Made by a program: the position numbers and the translations under genes. From Gordonia sp. KTR9 (GTDB lineage: Bacteria > Actinomycetota > Actinomycetes > Mycobacteriales > Mycobacteriaceae), in contig NC_018581.1 in the NCBI RefSeq assembly GCF_000143885.2, forward strand, positions 2,914,001 to 2,978,000: 64,000 nt of DNA, written 5' to 3'. Shown piece after piece: positions 11,853 through 19,233 of this stretch (positions are counted from its first letter, which is position 1; every line of letters starts with the position of its first letter). A model generated the notes under the pieces. The model searched no databases. It had not been told where the DNA came from and worked only from the letters and a program-made list of their open reading frames with translations.

Positions 11853-13277
11853 TCAGTGGTCGTGCTCGCCGATCCGGTGCACGTGGATGAGGTTGGTCGA
11901 ACCCACCGTGCCGGGCGGAGCACCGGCGACGATCACCACCACATCACCCTCACTGAGCCGCCCGATGCGGAGCAGCTGATGATCGACCTGATCGATCATG
12001 TGGTCCGTCGTGTCGACGTGATCGACGATGAACGTCTCAGTACCCCAACTCAACGCGAGCTGACTACGCACCGCCTGCGTCGGCGTGAACGCCAACAACG
12101 GAAGACGCGAATGCAACCGAGCCAACCGCCGCACAGTATCCCCGGACTGGGTGAACGCCACCAACGCCTTCACCTCCAGGCGCTCACCGATGTCACGCGC
12201 CGCATACGAGATCACACCCCGCTTGGTGCGCGGCACATGCGACAACGGCGGCACATCACGAGGACCACCCTCGACCGCACGACAAATCCGGTCCATCGTC
12301 CGAACCGTCTCCAACGGATACTTACCCACCGAGGTCTCCCCCGACAACATCACCGCATCCGCACCATCGAGAACAGCGTTGGCCACATCCGAGGCCTCCG
12401 CCCGCGTCGGACGCGAGTTCTCGATCATCGAATCGAGCATCTGCGTCGCCACGATCACCGGCTTGGCATTCTCCCGAGCCATCTGAATCGCCCGCTTCTG
12501 CACCAACGGCACCTGCTCCAGCGGCAACTCCACCCCCAGATCACCACGAGCCACCATGATCGCATCGAACGCCAACACGATCGCCTCGAGATTCTCGATC
12601 GCCTCAGGCTTCTCCAACTTCGCGATCACCGGCACCCGACGGCCCACCCGATCCATCACCTCATGGACCAACTCGATGTCCGAGGGACTACGCACGAACG
12701 ACAGCGCCACCATGTCGACCCCGAGCTCCAACGCGAACTCCAGATCAGCGATGTCCTTCTCCGACATCGCCGGCACCGACACACTCATCCCCGGAAGCGA
12801 CAGGCCCTTGTTGTTGCTGACCGGCCCGCCCTCGGTCACCGTGCACACCACATCGTTGCCCTCGACCGCAGACACGGCCAGACCGACCTTGCCGTCATCG
12901 ACCAGCAGACGATCCCCCGGGCTCGCGTCCTCGGCGAGTTGCTTGTACGTCGTGGAGACCCGATCATGCTCGCCCACGACATCCTCGACGGTGATACGTA
13001 CCTGTTCACCGGTCTCCCACACCGTCGACCCATCACAACCATCGAAACGGCCCAAACGGATCTTCGGACCCTGCAGATCGGCCAGAACACCGACCGCCTT
13101 CTCCGTGGTGTCCGAAGCCTTACGAACGCGCGCATAAACGGCCGCATGATCCTCATGCGTACCGTGGCTGAAATTCATCCGAGCCACGTCCATACCGCTC
13201 TCGACAAGCTCTTTCAAACGCTCATCACTCGCGGTGGCCGGGCCCAGCGTGCAAACAATCTTGGTTCGGCGATGCAT
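11853..13277 (-). CDS. pyk: Pyruvate kinase
   Basis: 474 residues. It catalyses phosphoenolpyruvate + ADP to pyruvate + ATP in glycolysis. Family landmarks are present in order: RRTKIVCTLGPA at the start, RMNFSHG, LADLQGPKIRLGRF, the active-site block KLEKPEAIENLEAI followed by MVARGDLGVELPLEQVP, and TQMLDSMIENSRPTRAEASD then AVMLSGETSVGKYP. The C-terminal regulatory domain is intact. The start is set at 13277, where the family begins; the upstream extension reads through non-homologous sequence. It is monocistronic: a hairpin at 13354-13389 separates it from the acid-sugar operon. Confidence 0.97.
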   Translation of the reverse strand: MHRRTKIVCTLGPATASDERLKELVESGMDVARMNFSHGTHEDHAAVYARVRKASDTTEKAVGVLADLQGPKIRLGRFDGCDGSTVWETGEQVRITVEDVVGEHDRVSTTYKQLAEDASPGDRLLVDDGKVGLAVSAVEGNDVVCTVTEGGPVSNNKGLSLPGMSVSVPAMSEKDIADLEFALELGVDMVALSFVRSPSDIELVHEVMDRVGRRVPVIAKLEKPEAIENLEAIVLAFDAIMVARGDLGVELPLEQVPLVQKRAIQMARENAKPVIVATQMLDSMIENSRPTRAEASDVANAVLDGADAVMLSGETSVGKYPLETVRTMDRICRAVEGGPRDVPPLSHVPRTKRGVISYAARDIGERLEVKALVAFTQSGDTVRRLARLHSRLPLLAFTPTQAVRSQLALSWGTETFIVDHVDTTDHMIDQVDHQLLRIGRLSEGDVVVIVAGAPPGTVGSTNLIHVHRIGEHDH

Positions 13278-13353: not shown

Positions 13354-13389
13354 CACCGTCTCGGCACCCGATCGAGTGCCGAGACGGTG
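13354..13389 (-). terminator. Terminator hairpin between kdgT-like gene and pyk
   Basis: A perfect 14-bp stem (CACCGTCTCGGCAC at 13354-13367 with its complement at 13376-13389) and an 8-nt loop, located just after the permease stop. No T-tract. It separates the acid-sugar operon from pyk, which has the same direction. Confidence 0.65.
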
Positions 13390-13422: not shown

Positions 13423-14460
13423 TTATGCGGTTGCGCTACCGTGCGTTTCGCGGGCTCGTGGGACATCTTCTGCGTCGGGGACATCGGTCTCGTCGTCTGT
13501 TCCGGCCCGCCGCTTCTTGACGCGCTTGGCCCATGCAGAGGTGATGATCGGGCACACGATTGCGGTGACGACGACCGATGCTGCAACCAGTACCGTGGCC
13601 TGTTCGGCCGCTGCTTCGTAGGCGGGATTGGCTTCCGCGATGATCGCCGGCACCAGCGCGGCGTTCCCTGCCGTGGTGGCAGCAGCAAGACCGGCCACTC
13701 CGTCTCCGCCGGTCAGTCGGTCGGCGGTCATCAGGACGAGGCCGCCGCCGAGGGAGACGAACAGACCCAAGGCGATTCCGAGAAGTCCCGCCTGCAGTAC
13801 GGCATTGAGGTTGATGGTCAGGCCCAGTGCGAGCCCGAGGAAAGGCACCATCGCCGGCACCAATGGGGCGAACAGTTCACGCATCCGTGGATCGAGGTTG
13901 CCGACCAGCATGCCGAGCGCGAGCGGCAGGATCGCGCCGACGAGTGCCTGCCAGGGGAACGCGGCCAGGCCGGCGATGCCCAGCGTGACCATGGTGAGGA
14001 ACGGGCCCGACTCGAGCGACATCAGGGAGTAGGCCCCGGCGTCCTTCTTTCGTCCGAACTGGGCCATCAGGGAGATGTAGAGGCCGCCGTTCGTGTCGTT
14101 GAGGGCGGCGACGATGGCCAGCACCGACAGGCCCGCGAAAATGCCACTGGCGACCGGGGCTTCGCCGAGGATGCGTCCGGCAATGACACCCACGATGATC
14201 GCGAAGACGACCTTCGTACCGAGAAGCACGCCGCCCTTCTTGAGAATATATGGGGTGGAACGGACTTCGAGTGTCGCGCCGAGACAGAAGAAGAACACTG
14301 CCAGCAAGGGCGCCAGGCCGGTGAAGAACGCGCCGGTGAACGAGCCGAAGAAGTCTCCGGCGTCGGGGGCGAAGGTATGGATGAGAGCGCCGATGAGCAG
14401 CGGCACGAGCATCATTCCGCCGGGAACACGTTCGATGGCACTTCTGATGGGTACGGACAT
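13423..14460 (-). CDS. 2-keto-3-deoxygluconate permease family transporter (KdgT-like)
   Basis: 345 residues with about ten hydrophobic segments. It starts with [20 protein letters not shown] and carries [36 protein letters not shown] and [11 protein letters not shown], all matching the KdgT family of inner-membrane, proton-coupled acid-sugar carriers. The C-terminal tail is charged and cytoplasmic. It is the last gene of the operon with a zinc alcohol dehydrogenase, a DUF1537 kinase and a RuBisCO-like protein, so its cargo is probably the acid sugar, or its keto or aldonate form, that the operon degrades rather than KDG itself. Confidence 0.87.
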
Positions 14461-14535
14461 GGTGACTCCTGAAGGGGTGGAACGAAGTTGGGGACCGATC
14501 TCGAGGTGTGAGGCGGTGGCGGGTACGGCTGGGCG

Positions 14536-15579
14536 TCAGCCCATTCCTGGGACGAGCAGCACCTTGCATGCGTCGCCGGTCAGCAGATCGATGGCTTTGT
14601 CGACATCGCTGAGCTTCTTGCGGTGTGTGACGAGCCAGTCCAGGTCGAGCCGGCCGGAGTCCAAGAGCAGCAGGCTCTGCTCCCAGGTCTCCCAGAGCCG
14701 GCGGCCGAAGATGCCGCGCAGGGTGATGCCCTTCTTGTTGATGAACTGTGCGATGTCGATGTCGACGGGCCGGCTCGGGTGGCCCACGGTGATGACGGTC
14801 GCTTCGCGGCGTAGTGCCTCGAACAGGGTGCCGAGTGCGACCGGGGCGCCGGAGCACTCGAACGCGACGTCGAATCCCCCTCGTGCGCCGGTCAGTTCGA
14901 GACATCTCTGCACAGGGTCGTCGTCAGGCGCCATGGCGATGACGCCGAGTTTCTCGGCTTGAGCGCGACGGTAGGGATTGGGCTCGACCGCGACGACGTA
15001 CGCGGCACCCATGAGCTGGGCCAGGTAGGCCACGACCAGTCCCACCGGCCCTGCGCCGCTGACGAGGACCGCACGACCCGCCACGGAGTAGTTCGCGCGC
15101 TGAACTGCGTGGACCGCGACTCCTGCTGCTTCCAGCAGTGCACCGGACTCGAAGGACAGGCCCTCGGGGAGTTTCACGCAAATGTCCTGCGGAACGTTCA
15201 TGTACTCGGCGAACAAGCCGTCGATGTGCATTCCGATGATGCGGGTTCGTTCGCACGTGTGGGCGTCGCCTGTTCGGCAGGCATAGCACCGGCCGCAGAT
15301 GAGGTGGCTCTCGAGTGCGACACGGTCGCCGACCTCGAGGTCGGTGACCCCGGGTCCGACCTCGACCACGGTGCCGGCACCTTCATGCCCCAGGACAACC
15401 GGAAGTGACAGGTTGAACGCCTGCGCCGAGGGTGTCCACTCATAGAGTTCGCGGTCGGTGCCGCACAGTGACGCGGCGGCCACCTCGATCACCACGTGAC
15501 CGTCGGTCGCTTTCGGATCGGGTGCGTCGGTGACGTATTCGACTCCGCGCTCGGCCGCGGTCTTCAGTACTGCTCTCAT
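14536..15579 (-). CDS. Zinc-dependent medium-chain alcohol/polyol dehydrogenase
   Basis: 347 residues of the MDR superfamily. Catalytic zinc ligands are Cys39 (SLCGTD) and His65-Glu66 (GHEGAG); the structural zinc site is Cys95, 98, 101 and 109. The Rossmann motif VSGAGPVGLVVAYLAQLMGA is at about 172. GTDRELYEW in the substrate lobe and FINKKGITLRGIFGRRLWET resemble threonine/sorbitol-dehydrogenase-like enzymes, as well as enzymes that oxidise C3 or C4 of aldonates. Within this operon it is placed to oxidise a hydroxy acid to the 3-oxo acid consumed by the kinase and the RuBisCO-like protein. Confidence 0.88.
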   Translation of the reverse strand: MRAVLKTAAERGVEYVTDAPDPKATDGHVVIEVAAASLCGTDRELYEWTPSAQAFNLSLPVVLGHEGAGTVVEVGPGVTDLEVGDRVALESHLICGRCYACRTGDAHTCERTRIIGMHIDGLFAEYMNVPQDICVKLPEGLSFESGALLEAAGVAVHAVQRANYSVAGRAVLVSGAGPVGLVVAYLAQLMGAAYVVAVEPNPYRRAQAEKLGVIAMAPDDDPVQRCLELTGARGGFDVAFECSGAPVALGTLFEALRREATVITVGHPSRPVDIDIAQFINKKGITLRGIFGRRLWETWEQSLLLLDSGRLDLDWLVTHRKKLSDVDKAIDLLTGDACKVLLVPGMG

Positions 15580-15615
15580 GGGTTGGATCTCTTTCTCACA
15601 GCTACGGGAAGGTGG

Positions 15616-16911
15616 TCACGCTGAAGTGGGTGCGGCGAAGCGGCGCAGGATGTCGACGGGACCGACCTGCCCGCCCTTGAGGAGCAGTCGACAGCCTGCA
15701 ACCGAGGAATCGTCGTCGGCGGTACAGATGGGGCCGGCGGTGACGAACTGCCGAGCGACGCGCAGATAACGAACGTCCATCGCAGCCAGGGCGTGGCTGG
15801 AGGTATCGCCGCCGAACACCACGATGTCGGAGGTCAGACTCTGTGTGGCCATCGTCGCCGCGAGTTCGCCCAGCACGGTGCCCACATGTTGGGCCGATAC
15901 CGTTCTGGTGGTCGAGTACCGTGGATCGCCGGCACCAAGCGTGGTGTGCACCATGACGTTTCGGCCGGCACCCAGCGCGTTCGACACGTCGGCGACGAGC
16001 GTTCTGGTCAGCTCGTCATCACGCTCATGCAGCAACCGTGCAGGTACCGGGATCTCGTCCCAACCGTGCTGCCGTGCGTCGTCGAGCTGGCGCGCGGTGA
16101 CACTCGAGGCGGACGCGCTCACCACCAGGACCGGCCCACCGGCGCGATCGGTGCCGGCACCGACCCCGCCGGCCCCGGCCGACTTCGCGAGTGCGGTCAT
16201 GATGCCGCCGGAACCGACGACCAGTGCCGGCTCGCCCCGCGACGAATCACGACGCAGCGCCGAGGCAACGGCGTCGAGCTGCGCATCGCTCACCGCGTCG
16301 ACGACGAACGCCGGGGAGTTCTCGTTGCTGCGCAACGCTTTCCACGATGCATCGAAGGATCCATCACCGTAGGCAGGCAGGTGCAGCGCTTCCGGAACGC
16401 GGTGGTCGCCGAACTGGTGGGACAACAGGTTCCGCAGATCAGCGTCCGACATCGGGGTCGACGGATGTGTGGCCATGACCGGATGGCGGTCGAGTCGGTA
16501 GATCTGGTCGCCGAACGCCGCGAAATGCTGGCTGAAGGCGGTGAACCGTCCGAAACCGGGTTGAGCCGGCACCACGGGCACCGGCCCGTGGCCGGGGAAT
16601 CGTTCGTGGAGCAGTTCGATTCCACGTCCGATACTGCCCAGAGTGGGTGCGCTGTCGAACGTCGAACACACCTTGTAGAGGACGACCTCGGCGTCGACCT
16701 CGGAGATTCGCGACAGGTCGCCGCGGACCTGCCGGTCGAATGCGGCTCCACCCAGCGAGCGGGCCGGCCCGGCGATTCCGACCACATCGGCGTCGGCGGG
16801 CAAGGGCGCGTCCCCGATGGCGAGAACGGCGTCCAACCCGTGAGCGTGTGCTTGTGCGAGGACGTCACCGGCGCCGGTGAGATCGTCGGCGACGAATGCG
16901 AAGCGTGCCAT
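15616..16911 (-). CDS. Four-carbon acid-sugar kinase family protein (DUF1537, OtnK/OiaK-type)
   Basis: 431 residues, usual for the family. The N-terminal DUF1537 domain (about 1-230) begins FAFVADDLTGAGDVLAQAHA; ADDLTGAGD is the family signature. The C-terminal NBD_C domain (about 255-425) has VVFGGDTSSHALAAMDV and LLKGGQVG. These enzymes phosphorylate tetronate or 3-oxo-tetronate-like acid sugars using ATP. The ATG at 16911 lies one base past the stop of the RuBisCO-like gene, showing translational coupling; the longer reading overlapping that gene is spurious. Together with a RuBisCO-like protein it resembles the OiaK-OiaX/OiaT pairs of D-apionate catabolism. Confidence 0.9.
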   Translation of the reverse strand: MARFAFVADDLTGAGDVLAQAHAHGLDAVLAIGDAPLPADADVVGIAGPARSLGGAAFDRQVRGDLSRISEVDAEVVLYKVCSTFDSAPTLGSIGRGIELLHERFPGHGPVPVVPAQPGFGRFTAFSQHFAAFGDQIYRLDRHPVMATHPSTPMSDADLRNLLSHQFGDHRVPEALHLPAYGDGSFDASWKALRSNENSPAFVVDAVSDAQLDAVASALRRDSSRGEPALVVGSGGIMTALAKSAGAGGVGAGTDRAGGPVLVVSASASSVTARQLDDARQHGWDEIPVPARLLHERDDELTRTLVADVSNALGAGRNVMVHTTLGAGDPRYSTTRTVSAQHVGTVLGELAATMATQSLTSDIVVFGGDTSSHALAAMDVRYLRVARQFVTAGPICTADDDSSVAGCRLLLKGGQVGPVDILRRFAAPTSA

Positions 16912-16912
16912 C

Positions 16913-18178
16913 TCAGCGCCCTCCGAACATCTCGACCGCGTGGGCCAGGTGCAGATCCCCGTCGCTCGCGTACGAGCGTGTCGCCTCCTCGAGCGTGACA
17001 CCGTCGACCGCTGCCTCCCAGGACTGGCGAAGGCTGCGCACGCCGGCCGCGGGCCCGTCGGGGTGGGCCGCCACACCGCCTCCGGCCAGCATGAGCACAT
17101 CGGTGGTCTGAACCGCGTCGAACGTCGGTCCCGGTGTCGAGACGTTCTGCCCGGAGGACAGCACCGGCAGCGGAGTGATGGTGTCACCCAGGGGGGTGAG
17201 CAGTGCCGCGACATTGCGGGACACCTCGTCGTCGGGCTCGTAGAACTTGCTACCGAGACCGCTGACGTGCAGGTGATCTGCACCTGCCAACCGGGCGAGC
17301 TTCTGCCACACGGCGTAGTCCACACCCAGCCCGGGGTAGCGCATGGAGGCGGCCAATCCGGCCCGGTGTCCGTGGATCGGGACCGAGCTGAACGACCGGA
17401 GCAGTTCGAGGGCGGGTAAACCCATGATCGGGATGTTGAGCATGACGCATCGGCCTCCGCCGTTGACGACGGTGTCATAGCGACGGCGCAGCCCGTACAG
17501 ATCGCCGGTGATGTTGAACGCGTACATCACCTGGTGGCCGGTCACCTGCTCGGCCTTGGCGATCTCGTCAGTCGCGACCGCAACCCGTCGCTCCAACGGC
17601 AGGTACGCCGGATCCGTCATCAGCTCGTCGTCTTTGATGACATCGATCGACGCCAATGCCAGCTCGCGGACGACCAACCGGAACTCGTCTTCGGACAAAC
17701 CCACGTTCGGCTTGACGATGGTTCCGATCAGCGCGCCCCGGGAGGCGTCGCTGATCAGATTCCTGGTCCCCCCGATCCCGAAGGCCGGCCCGGCGTGCGC
17801 CCCGACGAACTCGTCCGGAAGCTCGACGGACTGCAGGCGGCACGCGAACAGCTCTCCCAGCTCGAACAGGTTGCCGGCGATCGCCGTCTGCAAGCTGGCC
17901 AGGTCGACACCCACGTTCTCCATGGGGAACTCGATGGTGGCGATCGCCGCCCGGACCTTCTCCGGCTCGTGACGCGACGGCAGCGACGGGCGCACCCGGC
18001 CGAGTTCCCGGACATCCGCAACCCGGGCGGCGTGCCGTTCCCGAATCCGCGCGGATTCCCCCGGAACCGGGACGAAGGTGCCGCTCGACTGCTCACCGGC
18101 GAGCAACGCCGCGGCAGCGCTCGGGTCGATCTCCGACTCCAGGTAGTAGGTACAGCGAATGATTCGCGAGTCTCGCAT
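16913..18178 (-). CDS. RuBisCO-like protein (form IV), probable acid-sugar-phosphate decarboxylase or transcarboxylase
   Basis: 421 residues. The RuBisCO large-subunit fold is evident: TIVKPNVGLS with Lys156 (RuBisCO Lys175), the carbamylation/metal site IKDDE (Lys182, Asp184, Glu185), IHGHRAG (His271-Arg272) and a loop-6 Lys311 in GLGSKFYEPDDEV. The sequence around these sites differs from photosynthetic RuBisCO and from the methionine-salvage enolase. In D-apionate pathways such proteins (OiaX, OiaT) act on 3-oxo-isoapionate 4-phosphate made by a DUF1537 kinase, and that kinase is the next gene. Start at ATG 18178 (AAGAAGG upstream); the longer reading crosses the GntR operator. First gene of the operon. 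Confidence 0.9.
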   Translation of the reverse strand: MRDSRIIRCTYYLESEIDPSAAAALLAGEQSSGTFVPVPGESARIRERHAARVADVRELGRVRPSLPSRHEPEKVRAAIATIEFPMENVGVDLASLQTAIAGNLFELGELFACRLQSVELPDEFVGAHAGPAFGIGGTRNLISDASRGALIGTIVKPNVGLSEDEFRLVVRELALASIDVIKDDELMTDPAYLPLERRVAVATDEIAKAEQVTGHQVMYAFNITGDLYGLRRRYDTVVNGGGRCVMLNIPIMGLPALELLRSFSSVPIHGHRAGLAASMRYPGLGVDYAVWQKLARLAGADHLHVSGLGSKFYEPDDEVSRNVAALLTPLGDTITPLPVLSSGQNVSTPGPTFDAVQTTDVLMLAGGGVAAHPDGPAAGVRSLRQSWEAAVDGVTLEEATRSYASDGDLHLAHAVEMFGGR

Positions 18179-18229
18179 CGATGCGGCCCTTCTTCTGATC
18201 GCGGTGACCATCGACATCGCCACGACTTT

Positions 18230-18250
18230 GTACGTATGATTTGTACGTAC
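18230..18250. promoter_or_regulatory. GntR operator (perfect inverted repeat)
   Basis: GTACGTA (18230-18236), a 7-nt spacer and TACGTAC (18244-18250) form a perfect dyad; read differently, TTGTACGTA occurs twice, 13 bp apart. It covers the -10 box and expected start site of the RuBisCO-like operon promoter and sits 84 bp upstream of the GntR gene. Repression by the adjacent GntR/UTRA protein is the natural reading. Confidence 0.75.
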
Positions 18251-18277
18251 TTTACGGGTGACATGAGTCACTGTCAA
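18249..18277 (-). promoter_or_regulatory. Promoter of the RuBisCO-like acid-sugar operon
   Basis: Minus strand: TTGACA (18277-18272), exact consensus, a 17-bp spacer, and TAAAGT (18254-18249), 4 of 6. A second palindrome, GTGAC-N4-GTCAC (18258-18271), lies wholly inside the spacer and could bind another regulator such as a CRP-like protein. The leader would be about 65 nt. Confidence 0.75.
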
Positions 18278-18333
18278 ACACGGGAGGAAAGCCGATCACG
18301 TCGACGTCCACGACGAAGTTCTACGATCAGCAT

Positions 18334-19233
18334 GTGCAGAACGAGGCAGAAGCGGACCGTCCCGGCATCGATCGGGACGACACCCGGCCACTGCACGTGC
18401 AGATACGCGACCTGCTGCACGCCGAGATCACCAGTGGGCGCGCGCGCCCCGGGAGTGCGCTACCCACCGAGCAGGAGCTTCAACAACGTTTCGGCGTCTC
18501 ACGGAGCGTCGTGCGCCAGGCACTCGGCGCCCTCGTCGAACTGGGCCTGGTACAGCGGTCGCGCGGTCGCGGAAGCATTGTTGCGGCGACCCCCACGCTC
18601 CGCCGCCGAGTCCAACGGGCCGGCGGCCTCGACGAGCAAGCCCAATCCCACGGCCAGCAGCTGGTGACACGAGTGCTCTCCGTCGAGACATCCCTGGCGC
18701 CTGAAACGGCTAGAGCCGCCCTGGGTTCCGGCCGTACAACCCGCATCGAACGACTCCGCTACCTCGGAGACCTGCCGGTTGCCTACATGACGACATGGGT
18801 CTCCGCCGACACCTTTCCGCACTTCACCGCGCAGCTGCTCGAGGGCAACTCCCTGCTCGGGCTCATGCGCGCCCATGGTTACGTACCCGTCGGCGGACCA
18901 CGACAGGTACAAGCGGTCGCCGCCGACGAGGTCGTGGCAGACCATCTGAAAGTCTCCCCCGGCGATCCACTGCTGTTGCTCGAAGGCGTGACCCGCGACG
19001 AATCCGGTTACGGACTCGAATGGTTTCGGGTGTGGCACCGGCAGAACACCGTCTTCGACGTCGATGCGTGGGTCGCTGACACGCACGACACCAAGGCAGT
19101 CGACCTCGACGCCGCGAGATCGCTCCTCGTCGAGCTCCAGAACACCGTGTCGGAACTACGTAGGGAACTCGGCAGCGAGGACAGCGCTCCAGGCCCGACC
19201 GGTGAGCGGTCCACCGTGGCCACCGATACATAG
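18334..19233 (+). CDS. GntR family regulator, HutC/UTRA subfamily
   Basis: 299 residues. The winged helix-turn-helix is at about 18-85 (LHVQIRDLLHAEITSGRARP, then LPTEQELQQRFGVSRSVVRQ and LVELGLVQRSRGRGSIV), and the UTRA effector domain at about 105-260, which usually binds a sugar phosphate or organic acid. It diverges from the RuBisCO-like operon and is its likely repressor. The start is uncertain: GTG 18334 lacks a Shine-Dalgarno sequence, while GGGAGG (18282-18287) stands 7 nt before an in-frame ATC at 18295, with no ATG, GTG or TTG between. About ten extra residues may therefore be translated. Confidence 0.9.
   Translation: MQNEAEADRPGIDRDDTRPLHVQIRDLLHAEITSGRARPGSALPTEQELQQRFGVSRSVVRQALGALVELGLVQRSRGRGSIVAATPTLRRRVQRAGGLDEQAQSHGQQLVTRVLSVETSLAPETARAALGSGRTTRIERLRYLGDLPVAYMTTWVSADTFPHFTAQLLEGNSLLGLMRAHGYVPVGGPRQVQAVAADEVVADHLKVSPGDPLLLLEGVTRDESGYGLEWFRVWHRQNTVFDVDAWVADTHDTKAVDLDAARSLLVELQNTVSELRRELGSEDSAPGPTGERSTVATDT

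What the first reader, a model, noticed from the sequence alone, without database searches (positions are those of the whole stretch)
13423..19233. RuBisCO-like protein operon for an unassigned acid sugar
A form-IV RuBisCO-like protein, a DUF1537 kinase (1 nt apart), a zinc alcohol dehydrogenase and a KdgT-type permease share one direction, are bounded by a terminator (13354) and a consensus promoter (18249-18277), and diverge from a GntR/UTRA regulator. RLP plus DUF1537 kinase is the arrangement of the D-apionate 3-oxo-isoapionate-phosphate routes (OiaK with OiaX or OiaT), but the usual oxidoisomerase genes are absent and an MDR dehydrogenase takes their place. This points to a variant pathway: oxidation, phosphorylation, then decarboxylation or transcarboxylation of a different C4-C6 acid. 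The RLP keeps Lys156, the KDDE metal site and Lys311, so it should be catalytic.
Basis: partly seen in the sequence, partly recalled or inferred. Interest (0 to 1): 0.78.

Follow-up and report, generated by a model that had tools for sequence, protein, structure and literature searches.

The report
Uncharacterised RuBisCO-like acid-sugar catabolic operon

Summary
The operon is real: a GntR/UTRA regulator diverging from RLP, DUF1537 kinase (1 nt apart), Zn-type MDR dehydrogenase and KdgT-family permease. It is not the OiaX pathway. The RLP scores 362 bits against an OiaX cut-off of 700; a rooted tree puts it in an actinobacterial clade (100/100), with one Streptomyces RLP as sister, apart from OiaX and ApnO-linked RLPs; grouping it with OiaX is rejected (AU p 0.009). 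RLP, kinase and MDR sit together in 33 of 33 clade loci examined; no oxidoisomerase ApnO or tetrulose-phosphate isomerase was detected in their flanks. The RLP keeps RuBisCO residues E60, N123, K175, K201, H294, H327, K334, S379; four of these are altered in 6 of 6 OiaX compared. A GntR-type box pair, the only one in the genome, overlaps the RLP -10. A recent second pyruvate kinase lies just downstream; in Rhodococcus DMU1 pyk follows KdgT behind a second box. Most likely a 2-C-branched 3-hydroxy acid is oxidised at C3, phosphorylated, then cleaved by RuBisCO-like transcarboxylation/hydrolysis to 3-phosphoglycerate plus a small acid. Substrate unknown; chemistry inferred. New variant of a known kind.

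The parts
16913..18178 (-). form-IV RuBisCO-like protein (421 aa), predicted C-C cleaving enzyme
15616..16911 (-). DUF1537 (SBD_N + NBD_C) four-carbon-acid-sugar-type kinase, 431 aa
14536..15579 (-). zinc-type MDR dehydrogenase, L-threonine-3-dehydrogenase-like, 347 aa
13423..14460 (-). KdgT-family permease, 345 aa
18334..19233 (+). GntR/UTRA (HutC-type) regulator, divergent
18230..18250 (.). predicted GntR operator GTACGTAC-AAATCA-TACGTAC; only such place in the genome at up to 1 mismatch
18249..18277 (-). sigma-70-like promoter of the RLP operon; its -10 overlaps the operator
13356..13387 (-). 14-bp hairpin after KdgT, possible terminator or processing site, no T-run
11853..13277 (-). second pyruvate kinase gene, recent duplicate of the gltBD-pyk-tesB copy; possible associate of the cassette

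Best explanation
A substrate-inducible catabolic operon for a 2-C-branched 3-hydroxy aldonate (for example isoapionate = 2-C-hydroxymethyl-tetronate, or a related acid). KdgT imports the acid; the MDR dehydrogenase oxidises the C3 hydroxyl beside the branched C2, giving the 3-oxo (beta-keto) acid directly, so that no oxidoisomerase is needed; the DUF1537 kinase phosphorylates the terminal hydroxyl; the RLP, using its RuBisCO residue set and a carbamylated Lys182, loses CO2 to form the enediolate, re-adds CO2 at the neighbouring carbon and hydrolyses the C-C bond, as OiaT is reported to do, giving 3-phosphoglycerate plus a small hydroxy acid (glycolate for a C5 substrate). 3-Phosphoglycerate enters lower glycolysis, helped by the extra pyruvate kinase. 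GntR represses by binding the box on the -10 until the substrate is present. Shown: gene content, conservation, clade, residues, box. Inferred: every chemical step, substrate class, regulation.
For: RLP, kinase and MDR together in 33 of 33 clade loci while transporter and regulator vary: three enzymes form the core. No ApnO, TIM-like or RpiB-like gene found in the flanks held for these loci (the same queries found ApnO in other loci). The listed RuBisCO residues are kept in 119 or 120 of the 120 best-scoring homologues but E60D, N123G, H327Q, S379G/C in 6 of 6 OiaX compared. A second pyk beside KdgT here and in Rhodococcus DMU1, where a GntR-type box precedes KdgT-pyk; pyk in Azospirillum oryzae and Bradyrhizobium RLP loci, eno + ppc in Cupriavidus. 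The R. etli OiaX locus has TIM- and RpiB-like genes instead.
Against: pyk lies near the cassette in only 1 of 33 other clade loci; the window copy is 96.6% identical to the genome's other copy, so it could be a chance recent duplication, and a hairpin separates it from KdgT. TIM/RpiB isomerases were seen in only 1 of 6 OiaX loci (6-9 kb flanks), so their absence says little. No characterised OiaT sequence was in the comparison, and residues alone do not prove a reaction. The MDR's nearest solved relatives are L-threonine dehydrogenases; its action on a branched acid is guesswork. The sister locus L057 has an MDR only 37% identical over 200 residues, so the two may not be orthologues.
Confidence: 0.45

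Rival explanations
1. Decarboxylase version: the RLP only decarboxylates the 3-oxo acid phosphate (OiaX-like outcome by another clade), making a ketose phosphate used by housekeeping isomerases.
For: OiaX is the best-scoring family model for the RLP; decarboxylation is half of the OiaT reaction and should need fewer residues.
Against: Residues altered in 6 of 6 OiaX compared are kept here; grouping with OiaX rejected, AU p 0.009, though the group was named after the tree was seen; no isomerase genes found in the cassettes' flanks.
Confidence: 0.2
2. C4-acid version: the MDR oxidises a threonate or erythronate to 3-oxo-tetronate, the kinase makes the 4-phosphate, and the RLP replaces the decarboxylase OtnC to give dihydroxyacetone phosphate.
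For: DUF1537 kinases include 3-oxo-tetronate and threonate kinases; the product would be a central metabolite without extra enzymes.
Against: Kinase scores 205 bits to OiaK against 126.5 to OtnK and 79 to threonate kinase, all below cut-off; OtnK of L059 is only 25% identical; a full RuBisCO residue set should not be needed for this reaction; the pyk link is unexplained.
Confidence: 0.12
3. C6 version: the acid is hamamelonate (2-carboxyarabinitol) and the RLP cleaves the 3-keto 5-phosphate to 3-phosphoglycerate plus glycerate, or uses O2 as reported for the hamamelose RLP.
For: An Ochrobactrum RLP is placed in hamamelose assimilation, with 3-phosphoglycerate and glycolate named at its last step (citing passage with unclear wording); residues of both RuBisCO phosphate sites are largely kept; a glycerate kinase and a D-glycerate dehydrogenase lie about 5-6 kb beyond the DMU1 cassette.
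Against: No recurrent further enzyme gene was found around the cassettes with a crude gene caller; the DMU1 glycerate genes recur in no other clade locus apart from one 36% dehydrogenase hit in L017; no direct test.
Confidence: 0.13
4. Plain D-apionate route with the oxidoisomerase step done by the MDR or by an unlinked enzyme.
For: The sister RLP locus L057 sits in a pectin-type glycoside hydrolase cluster, and RG-II contains apiose (recalled); JGI names 4 of the 120 listed homologues as OiaT.
Against: ApnO not found in window or clade loci nor by two genome searches that lacked a positive control; an MDR is not known for the ketol rearrangement (recalled); no Gfo/Idh apiose-dehydrogenase hit in the clade loci.
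Confidence: 0.1

Closest known systems
D-apionate pathway with OiaT (RLP 3-oxo-isoapionate-4-phosphate transcarboxylase/hydrolase; Carter et al. 2018, not read, seen through a passage in PMC6302742)
   Same: RLP + DUF1537 kinase; RuBisCO catalytic residues are kept in ApnO-linked non-OiaX RLPs as in the window clade
   Different: MDR dehydrogenase instead of ApnO and Gfo/Idh; separate RLP clade (99/94 with L057); kinase 30-36% identical to the kinases of the other RLP loci compared outside the clade
D-apionate pathway with OiaX decarboxylase
   Same: RLP fold, metal site, DUF1537 kinase
   Different: OiaX residue changes absent; model score half the cut-off; no TIM/RpiB-like genes found nearby; AU test rejects grouping
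D-hamamelose pathway RLP of Ochrobactrum anthropi (Kim et al. 2018, not read; seen through passages in PMC8914248 and PMC10176493)
   Same: branched sugar, RLP, 3-phosphoglycerate named at the last step
   Different: sequence and gene order could not be compared
Burkholderia fungorum RLP, PDB 3nwr
   Different: its title states no function; it falls with L034 and L037, the VOC/TRAP-linked RLPs

Membership tests
OiaX (3-oxo-isoapionate-4-phosphate decarboxylase) | NCBIfam NF042437 score at least 700 | tested here: not met
   362 bits; R. etli OiaX gives 784
OiaX | falls in the OiaX clade | tested here: not met
   AU p 0.009 against window clade + OiaX, group named after the tree was seen
OiaX | D60, G123, Q327, G/C379 as in 6 of 6 OiaX compared (a pattern found here, not from the literature) | tested here: not met
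   window has E, N, H, S
OiaT | sequence kinship to the characterised Xanthobacter enzyme | not testable with these tools
   sequence not found by name; with Xanthobacteraceae/Ancylobacter and related RLPs as stand-ins (11 rows) the grouping is weakly rejected, AU p 0.043
OiaT | RuBisCO carboxylation and hydrolysis residues kept (expected from the reported reaction) | tested here: met
OiaT | transcarboxylase/hydrolase activity on 3-oxo-isoapionate-4-phosphate | not testable with these tools
   needs assay
D-apionate pathway | ApnO oxidoisomerase gene with the cassette | tested here: not met
   ApnO queries hit L033 and L038 but neither the window nor the clade loci L002-L032, nor L092-L094
D-apionate pathway | ApnO anywhere in the genome | tested here: inconclusive
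   no hit by protein or by PF16896, but neither search had a positive control
MtnW | TIGR03332 score at least 513.6 | tested here: not met
   130 bits
Form III RuBisCO | TIGR03326 score at least 497 | tested here: not met
   213 bits
OiaK | NF042436 score at least 700 | tested here: not met
   205 bits; note that the kinase of the non-OiaX locus L062 also misses it at 472.5
3-oxo-tetronate kinase | NF043035 score at least 350 | tested here: not met
   126.5 bits
KdgT | Pfam PF03812 over cut-off | tested here: met
   372 bits
KdgT | NCBIfam equivalog TIGR00793 score at least 453.8 | tested here: not met
   393 bits
L-threonine 3-dehydrogenase | NF003808 score at least 380 or TIGR00692 at least 458 | tested here: not met
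   292 and 289.5 bits
Form IV RLP with RuBisCO fold | fold and metal-binding KDDE | tested here: met
   AlphaFold mean pLDDT 89.9; TM 0.90 to 3nwr; KDDE at 182-185

The most novel reading that the evidence does not exclude
The substrate is a dephosphorylated RuBisCO inhibitor or misfire product from plant matter: 2-carboxyarabinitol (identical with hamamelonate) or 2-carboxytetritol (the isoapionate skeleton). Oxidised at C3 and phosphorylated, these become mono-phosphate analogues of RuBisCO's own six-carbon keto intermediate (or its C5 counterpart), and this RLP would run RuBisCO's cleavage half-reaction on them to 3-phosphoglycerate. A RuBisCO relative would thus recycle RuBisCO's own waste.
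Probability: 0.12. Interest if true: 0.85.

Novelty: new variant of a known kind. Interest (0 to 1): 0.55.

Why it matters
It marks a separate RLP clade with a fixed three-enzyme partner set, and gives a sequence test (E60, N123, H327, S379) that sets the RLPs annotated OiaX apart from those that keep the residues expected for RuBisCO-type carboxylation and hydrolysis. If the chemistry holds, it is a further natural use of that half-reaction in sugar-acid breakdown, and would identify an unknown branched acid used by soil actinobacteria.

Tried and rejected
Considered and dropped: OiaX and MtnW membership (scores, tree, residues). The argument that the RuBisCO P1 phosphate site is lost: the first residue table (repeated) placed S379 and G381 one residue too far; one search corrected it (S379 = Ser341, kept; G380 is Ser; G381 kept; Ile382 is Gln), so both phosphate sites are largely kept (W66F, G380S) and carbon number cannot be read from them.

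Led nowhere: search for a characterised OiaT by name (120 best of 8000 rows listed, none shows an OiaT name in the part of the names printed; Xanthobacteraceae and Ancylobacter proteins used as stand-ins). Empty insertion site in congeners: a DoxX-type match was found in 13 of 21 genomes including the own one, several weak; in the 8 loci of other genomes taken further no other flank gene was found, inconclusive. Recurrent extra neighbour families: a crude gene caller gave four recurrent clusters; the largest consists of reverse-strand frames lying on the cassette, the other three span three loci each and were not annotated. Glycolate use: four FAD-oxidase_C matches in the genome, not identified further (one search failed); no glyoxylate carboligase over cut-off. 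Composition gives no clear foreign signal. Literature: in the rows listed (2 to 20 rows each, of up to 4,467 papers holding the terms) I saw no paper on this actinobacterial cassette or on bacterial use of 2-carboxyarabinitol; the library lacks most subscription papers.

L021 and L022 have identical RLPs, and L093 and L094 lie in one genome, but each was counted as a locus. L005 and L029 (MDR), L015 (kinase) and L030 (RLP) match in two pieces or 17 and were counted as present. The 21 non-OiaX and 6 OiaX comparison loci are those I fetched of 365 plasmid records with a match plus L097 and L098; the choice was mine, for spread.
Full report
OBSERVATION. On the minus strand: RLP 16913-18178, kinase 15616-16911, MDR 14536-15579, KdgT 13423-14460; on the plus strand GntR/UTRA 18334-19233. 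Gaps are 1, 36 and 75 nt. Pfam: RuBisCO_large and RuBisCO_large_N; SBD_N and NBD_C; ADH_N and ADH_zinc_N; KdgT; GntR and UTRA. The MDR sequence shows a four-Cys structural-zinc stretch and the GHE motif (printed; motif reading from general knowledge). The RLP is the only RuBisCO_large match in the genome.

CATALYTIC RESIDUES. In spinach RuBisCO numbering (recalled; mapped through an aligned form I sequence) the window RLP keeps E60, T65, N123, K175, K201, D203, E204, H294, R295, H327, K334, S379, G381, G403, G404, and differs at W66 (F), K177 (N), G380 (S). In the 120 listed homologues each kept residue is conserved in 119 or 120 (these are the best 120 of 4413 hits, so near relatives). In 120 Xanthobacter-type homologues all are conserved. 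In 6 of 6 OiaX sequences compared the residues are D60, G123, Q327 and G or C at 379. N123, H327 and S379 are tied to carboxylation, hydration and phosphate binding in RuBisCO (recalled). So the window RLP looks equipped for the whole RuBisCO-type sequence, while OiaX, described as a decarboxylase (passage in PMC6302742), has lost parts of it. Without the characterised OiaT sequence this stays an inference.

CONSERVED CASSETTE. A genome scan gave 30 loci; L031 was dropped as partial. Adding Rhodococcus DMU1 (L032) and L092-L094 gives 33 loci. RLP, kinase and MDR are together in 33 of 33; a KdgT-family permease homologue (34-86% identity, in L032 by annotation) in 32 of 33, the exception L092 having an MFS-type transporter and a DeoR-type regulator near (my reading of the translations); a GntR homologue in 29 of 33. 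ApnO, TIM-like and RpiB-like queries found nothing in the flanks held for these loci, while the ApnO queries hit L033 and L038. The transporter and regulator vary, the three enzymes do not: they are the core.

RELATED CASSETTES. Among 21 non-OiaX loci outside the window clade (L033-L037, L057-L066, L068, L069, L097, L098, L103, L104) a kinase was found beside the RLP in 20 (not L060), an ApnO-like gene in 8, and pyk, eno or ppc in 3 (L035 pyk, L036 pyk, L059 eno + ppc). Of 6 OiaX loci 0 have pyk/eno/ppc and 1 (R. etli) has TIM + RpiB. Flanks differ (6-9 kb) and plasmid annotation is incomplete, so presence was checked by tblastn. L057 places MDR, RLP and kinase inside a pectin-type glycoside-hydrolase cluster, but its MDR is only 37% identical to the window's over 200 residues.

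PYRUVATE KINASE. The genome has two complete pyruvate kinase genes, and a further 633-aa open frame with a divergent PK match in two pieces. The window copy (11853-13277) is 96.6% identical in DNA and 99.2% in protein to the copy beside gltBD and tesB (neighbours named from their translations); 45 synonymous and 3 non-synonymous codon differences of 475. The similarity covers the gene alone. In Rhodococcus DMU1 a 79% identical pyk lies directly behind KdgT. An extra gene for lower glycolysis fits a 3-phosphoglycerate product. Against: no pyk in the other 32 loci, and in the window a hairpin separates KdgT from pyk.

REGULATION. GTACGYA-N6-KTACGYAC boxes stand between GntR and the first gene in the window and in 14 of 30 other loci tested (L002-L030 and L032). 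The window box (18230-18250) is the only place in the genome at up to one mismatch of TACGTAY-N6-TACGTAC, matched on both strands as a near-palindrome, against one match of the reversed control pattern; 0.06 expected per window at up to two mismatches. It overlaps the -10 of the TTGACA/TAAAGT promoter, as a repressor site would. In DMU1 a second box lies 5' of KdgT-pyk, which would put pyk in the regulon.

DISTRIBUTION. 0 of 36 congeners have the RLP at E 1e-20 (four other genomes of the order gave 30-31% identical matches, E 1e-25 to 1e-28). 6 of 396 genomes of a phylum draw (only the own genome and G008 above 50% identity) and 6 of 397 of an order draw match at E 1e-60 or better, own genome included. 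The nearest relative, L002, is labelled Kitasatospora (85% RLP, 93% MDR identity). This patchiness suggests horizontal transfer (inference).

CHEMISTRY (inference). KdgT suggests an imported acid. With an MDR in place of ApnO, the substrate should already carry the branch at C2 with a free C3 hydroxyl, so that simple oxidation gives the beta-keto acid that ApnO otherwise makes by rearrangement (reaction recalled). Kinase and RLP then act as OiaK and OiaT. Decarboxylation, recarboxylation at the neighbouring carbon and hydrolysis would give 3-phosphoglycerate plus glycolate for a C5 substrate (my deduction). Candidates: isoapionate, 2-C-methylerythronate, hamamelonate. Hamamelonate 2'-phosphate and the RuBisCO night inhibitor 2-carboxyarabinitol 1-phosphate are the same compound (title of Beck et al. 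1989 in the reference list of PMC9833046), and carboxytetritol bisphosphate is a listed RuBisCO misfire product (PMC9833046 passages): hence the bold reading. A passage in PMC8914248 places an Ochrobactrum RLP in hamamelose assimilation and names 3-phosphoglycerate and glycolate at its last step, in unclear wording; a review cites the same work for an RLP oxygenation (PMC10176493 passages). Neither Carter 2018 nor Kim 2018 was read (Carter not held; Kim not looked up).

VERDICT. A real, conserved, apparently uncharacterised variant of the RLP/DUF1537-kinase pathways; mechanism class moderately supported, substrate open.

Noticed in passing
window 11853-13277 and G000:C2:3391380-3392800: Two near-identical pyruvate kinase genes in one genome; the window copy is outside the gltBD-pyk-tesB context of the other.
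   Followed up: yes
L057 5961-9651: MDR, RLP and kinase embedded in a pectin-type glycoside hydrolase cluster on a Streptomyces plasmid; RG-II also contains aceric acid, a branched acid (recalled), a possible substrate.
   Followed up: partly
L003 and L009: Arthrobacter sp. EpRS71 has two versions of the cassette with different KdgT-type permeases on opposite sides of the RLP.
   Followed up: no
L033, L058: Haloarchaeal plasmids carry RLP + DUF1537 kinase + ApnO-like cassettes.
   Followed up: no
L034, L037, L104: A VOC-family gene sits directly before the RLP, with TRAP transporter genes; L034 and L037 group with PDB 3nwr; role unknown.
   Followed up: no
L059 1-15233: Cupriavidus plasmid cluster joins ppc, eno, otnK, otnC, SDR, RLP, kinase, TRAP transporter and an ApnO-like gene.
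   Followed up: partly
L031 8001-8321: Only 107 residues of an RLP match next to a 69% identical KdgT in Streptomyces diacarni: a remnant or assembly break.
   Followed up: no
L030 1464-2718: RLP of Arthrobacter sp. ISL-85 matches in two pieces; broken gene or sequencing error.
   Followed up: no
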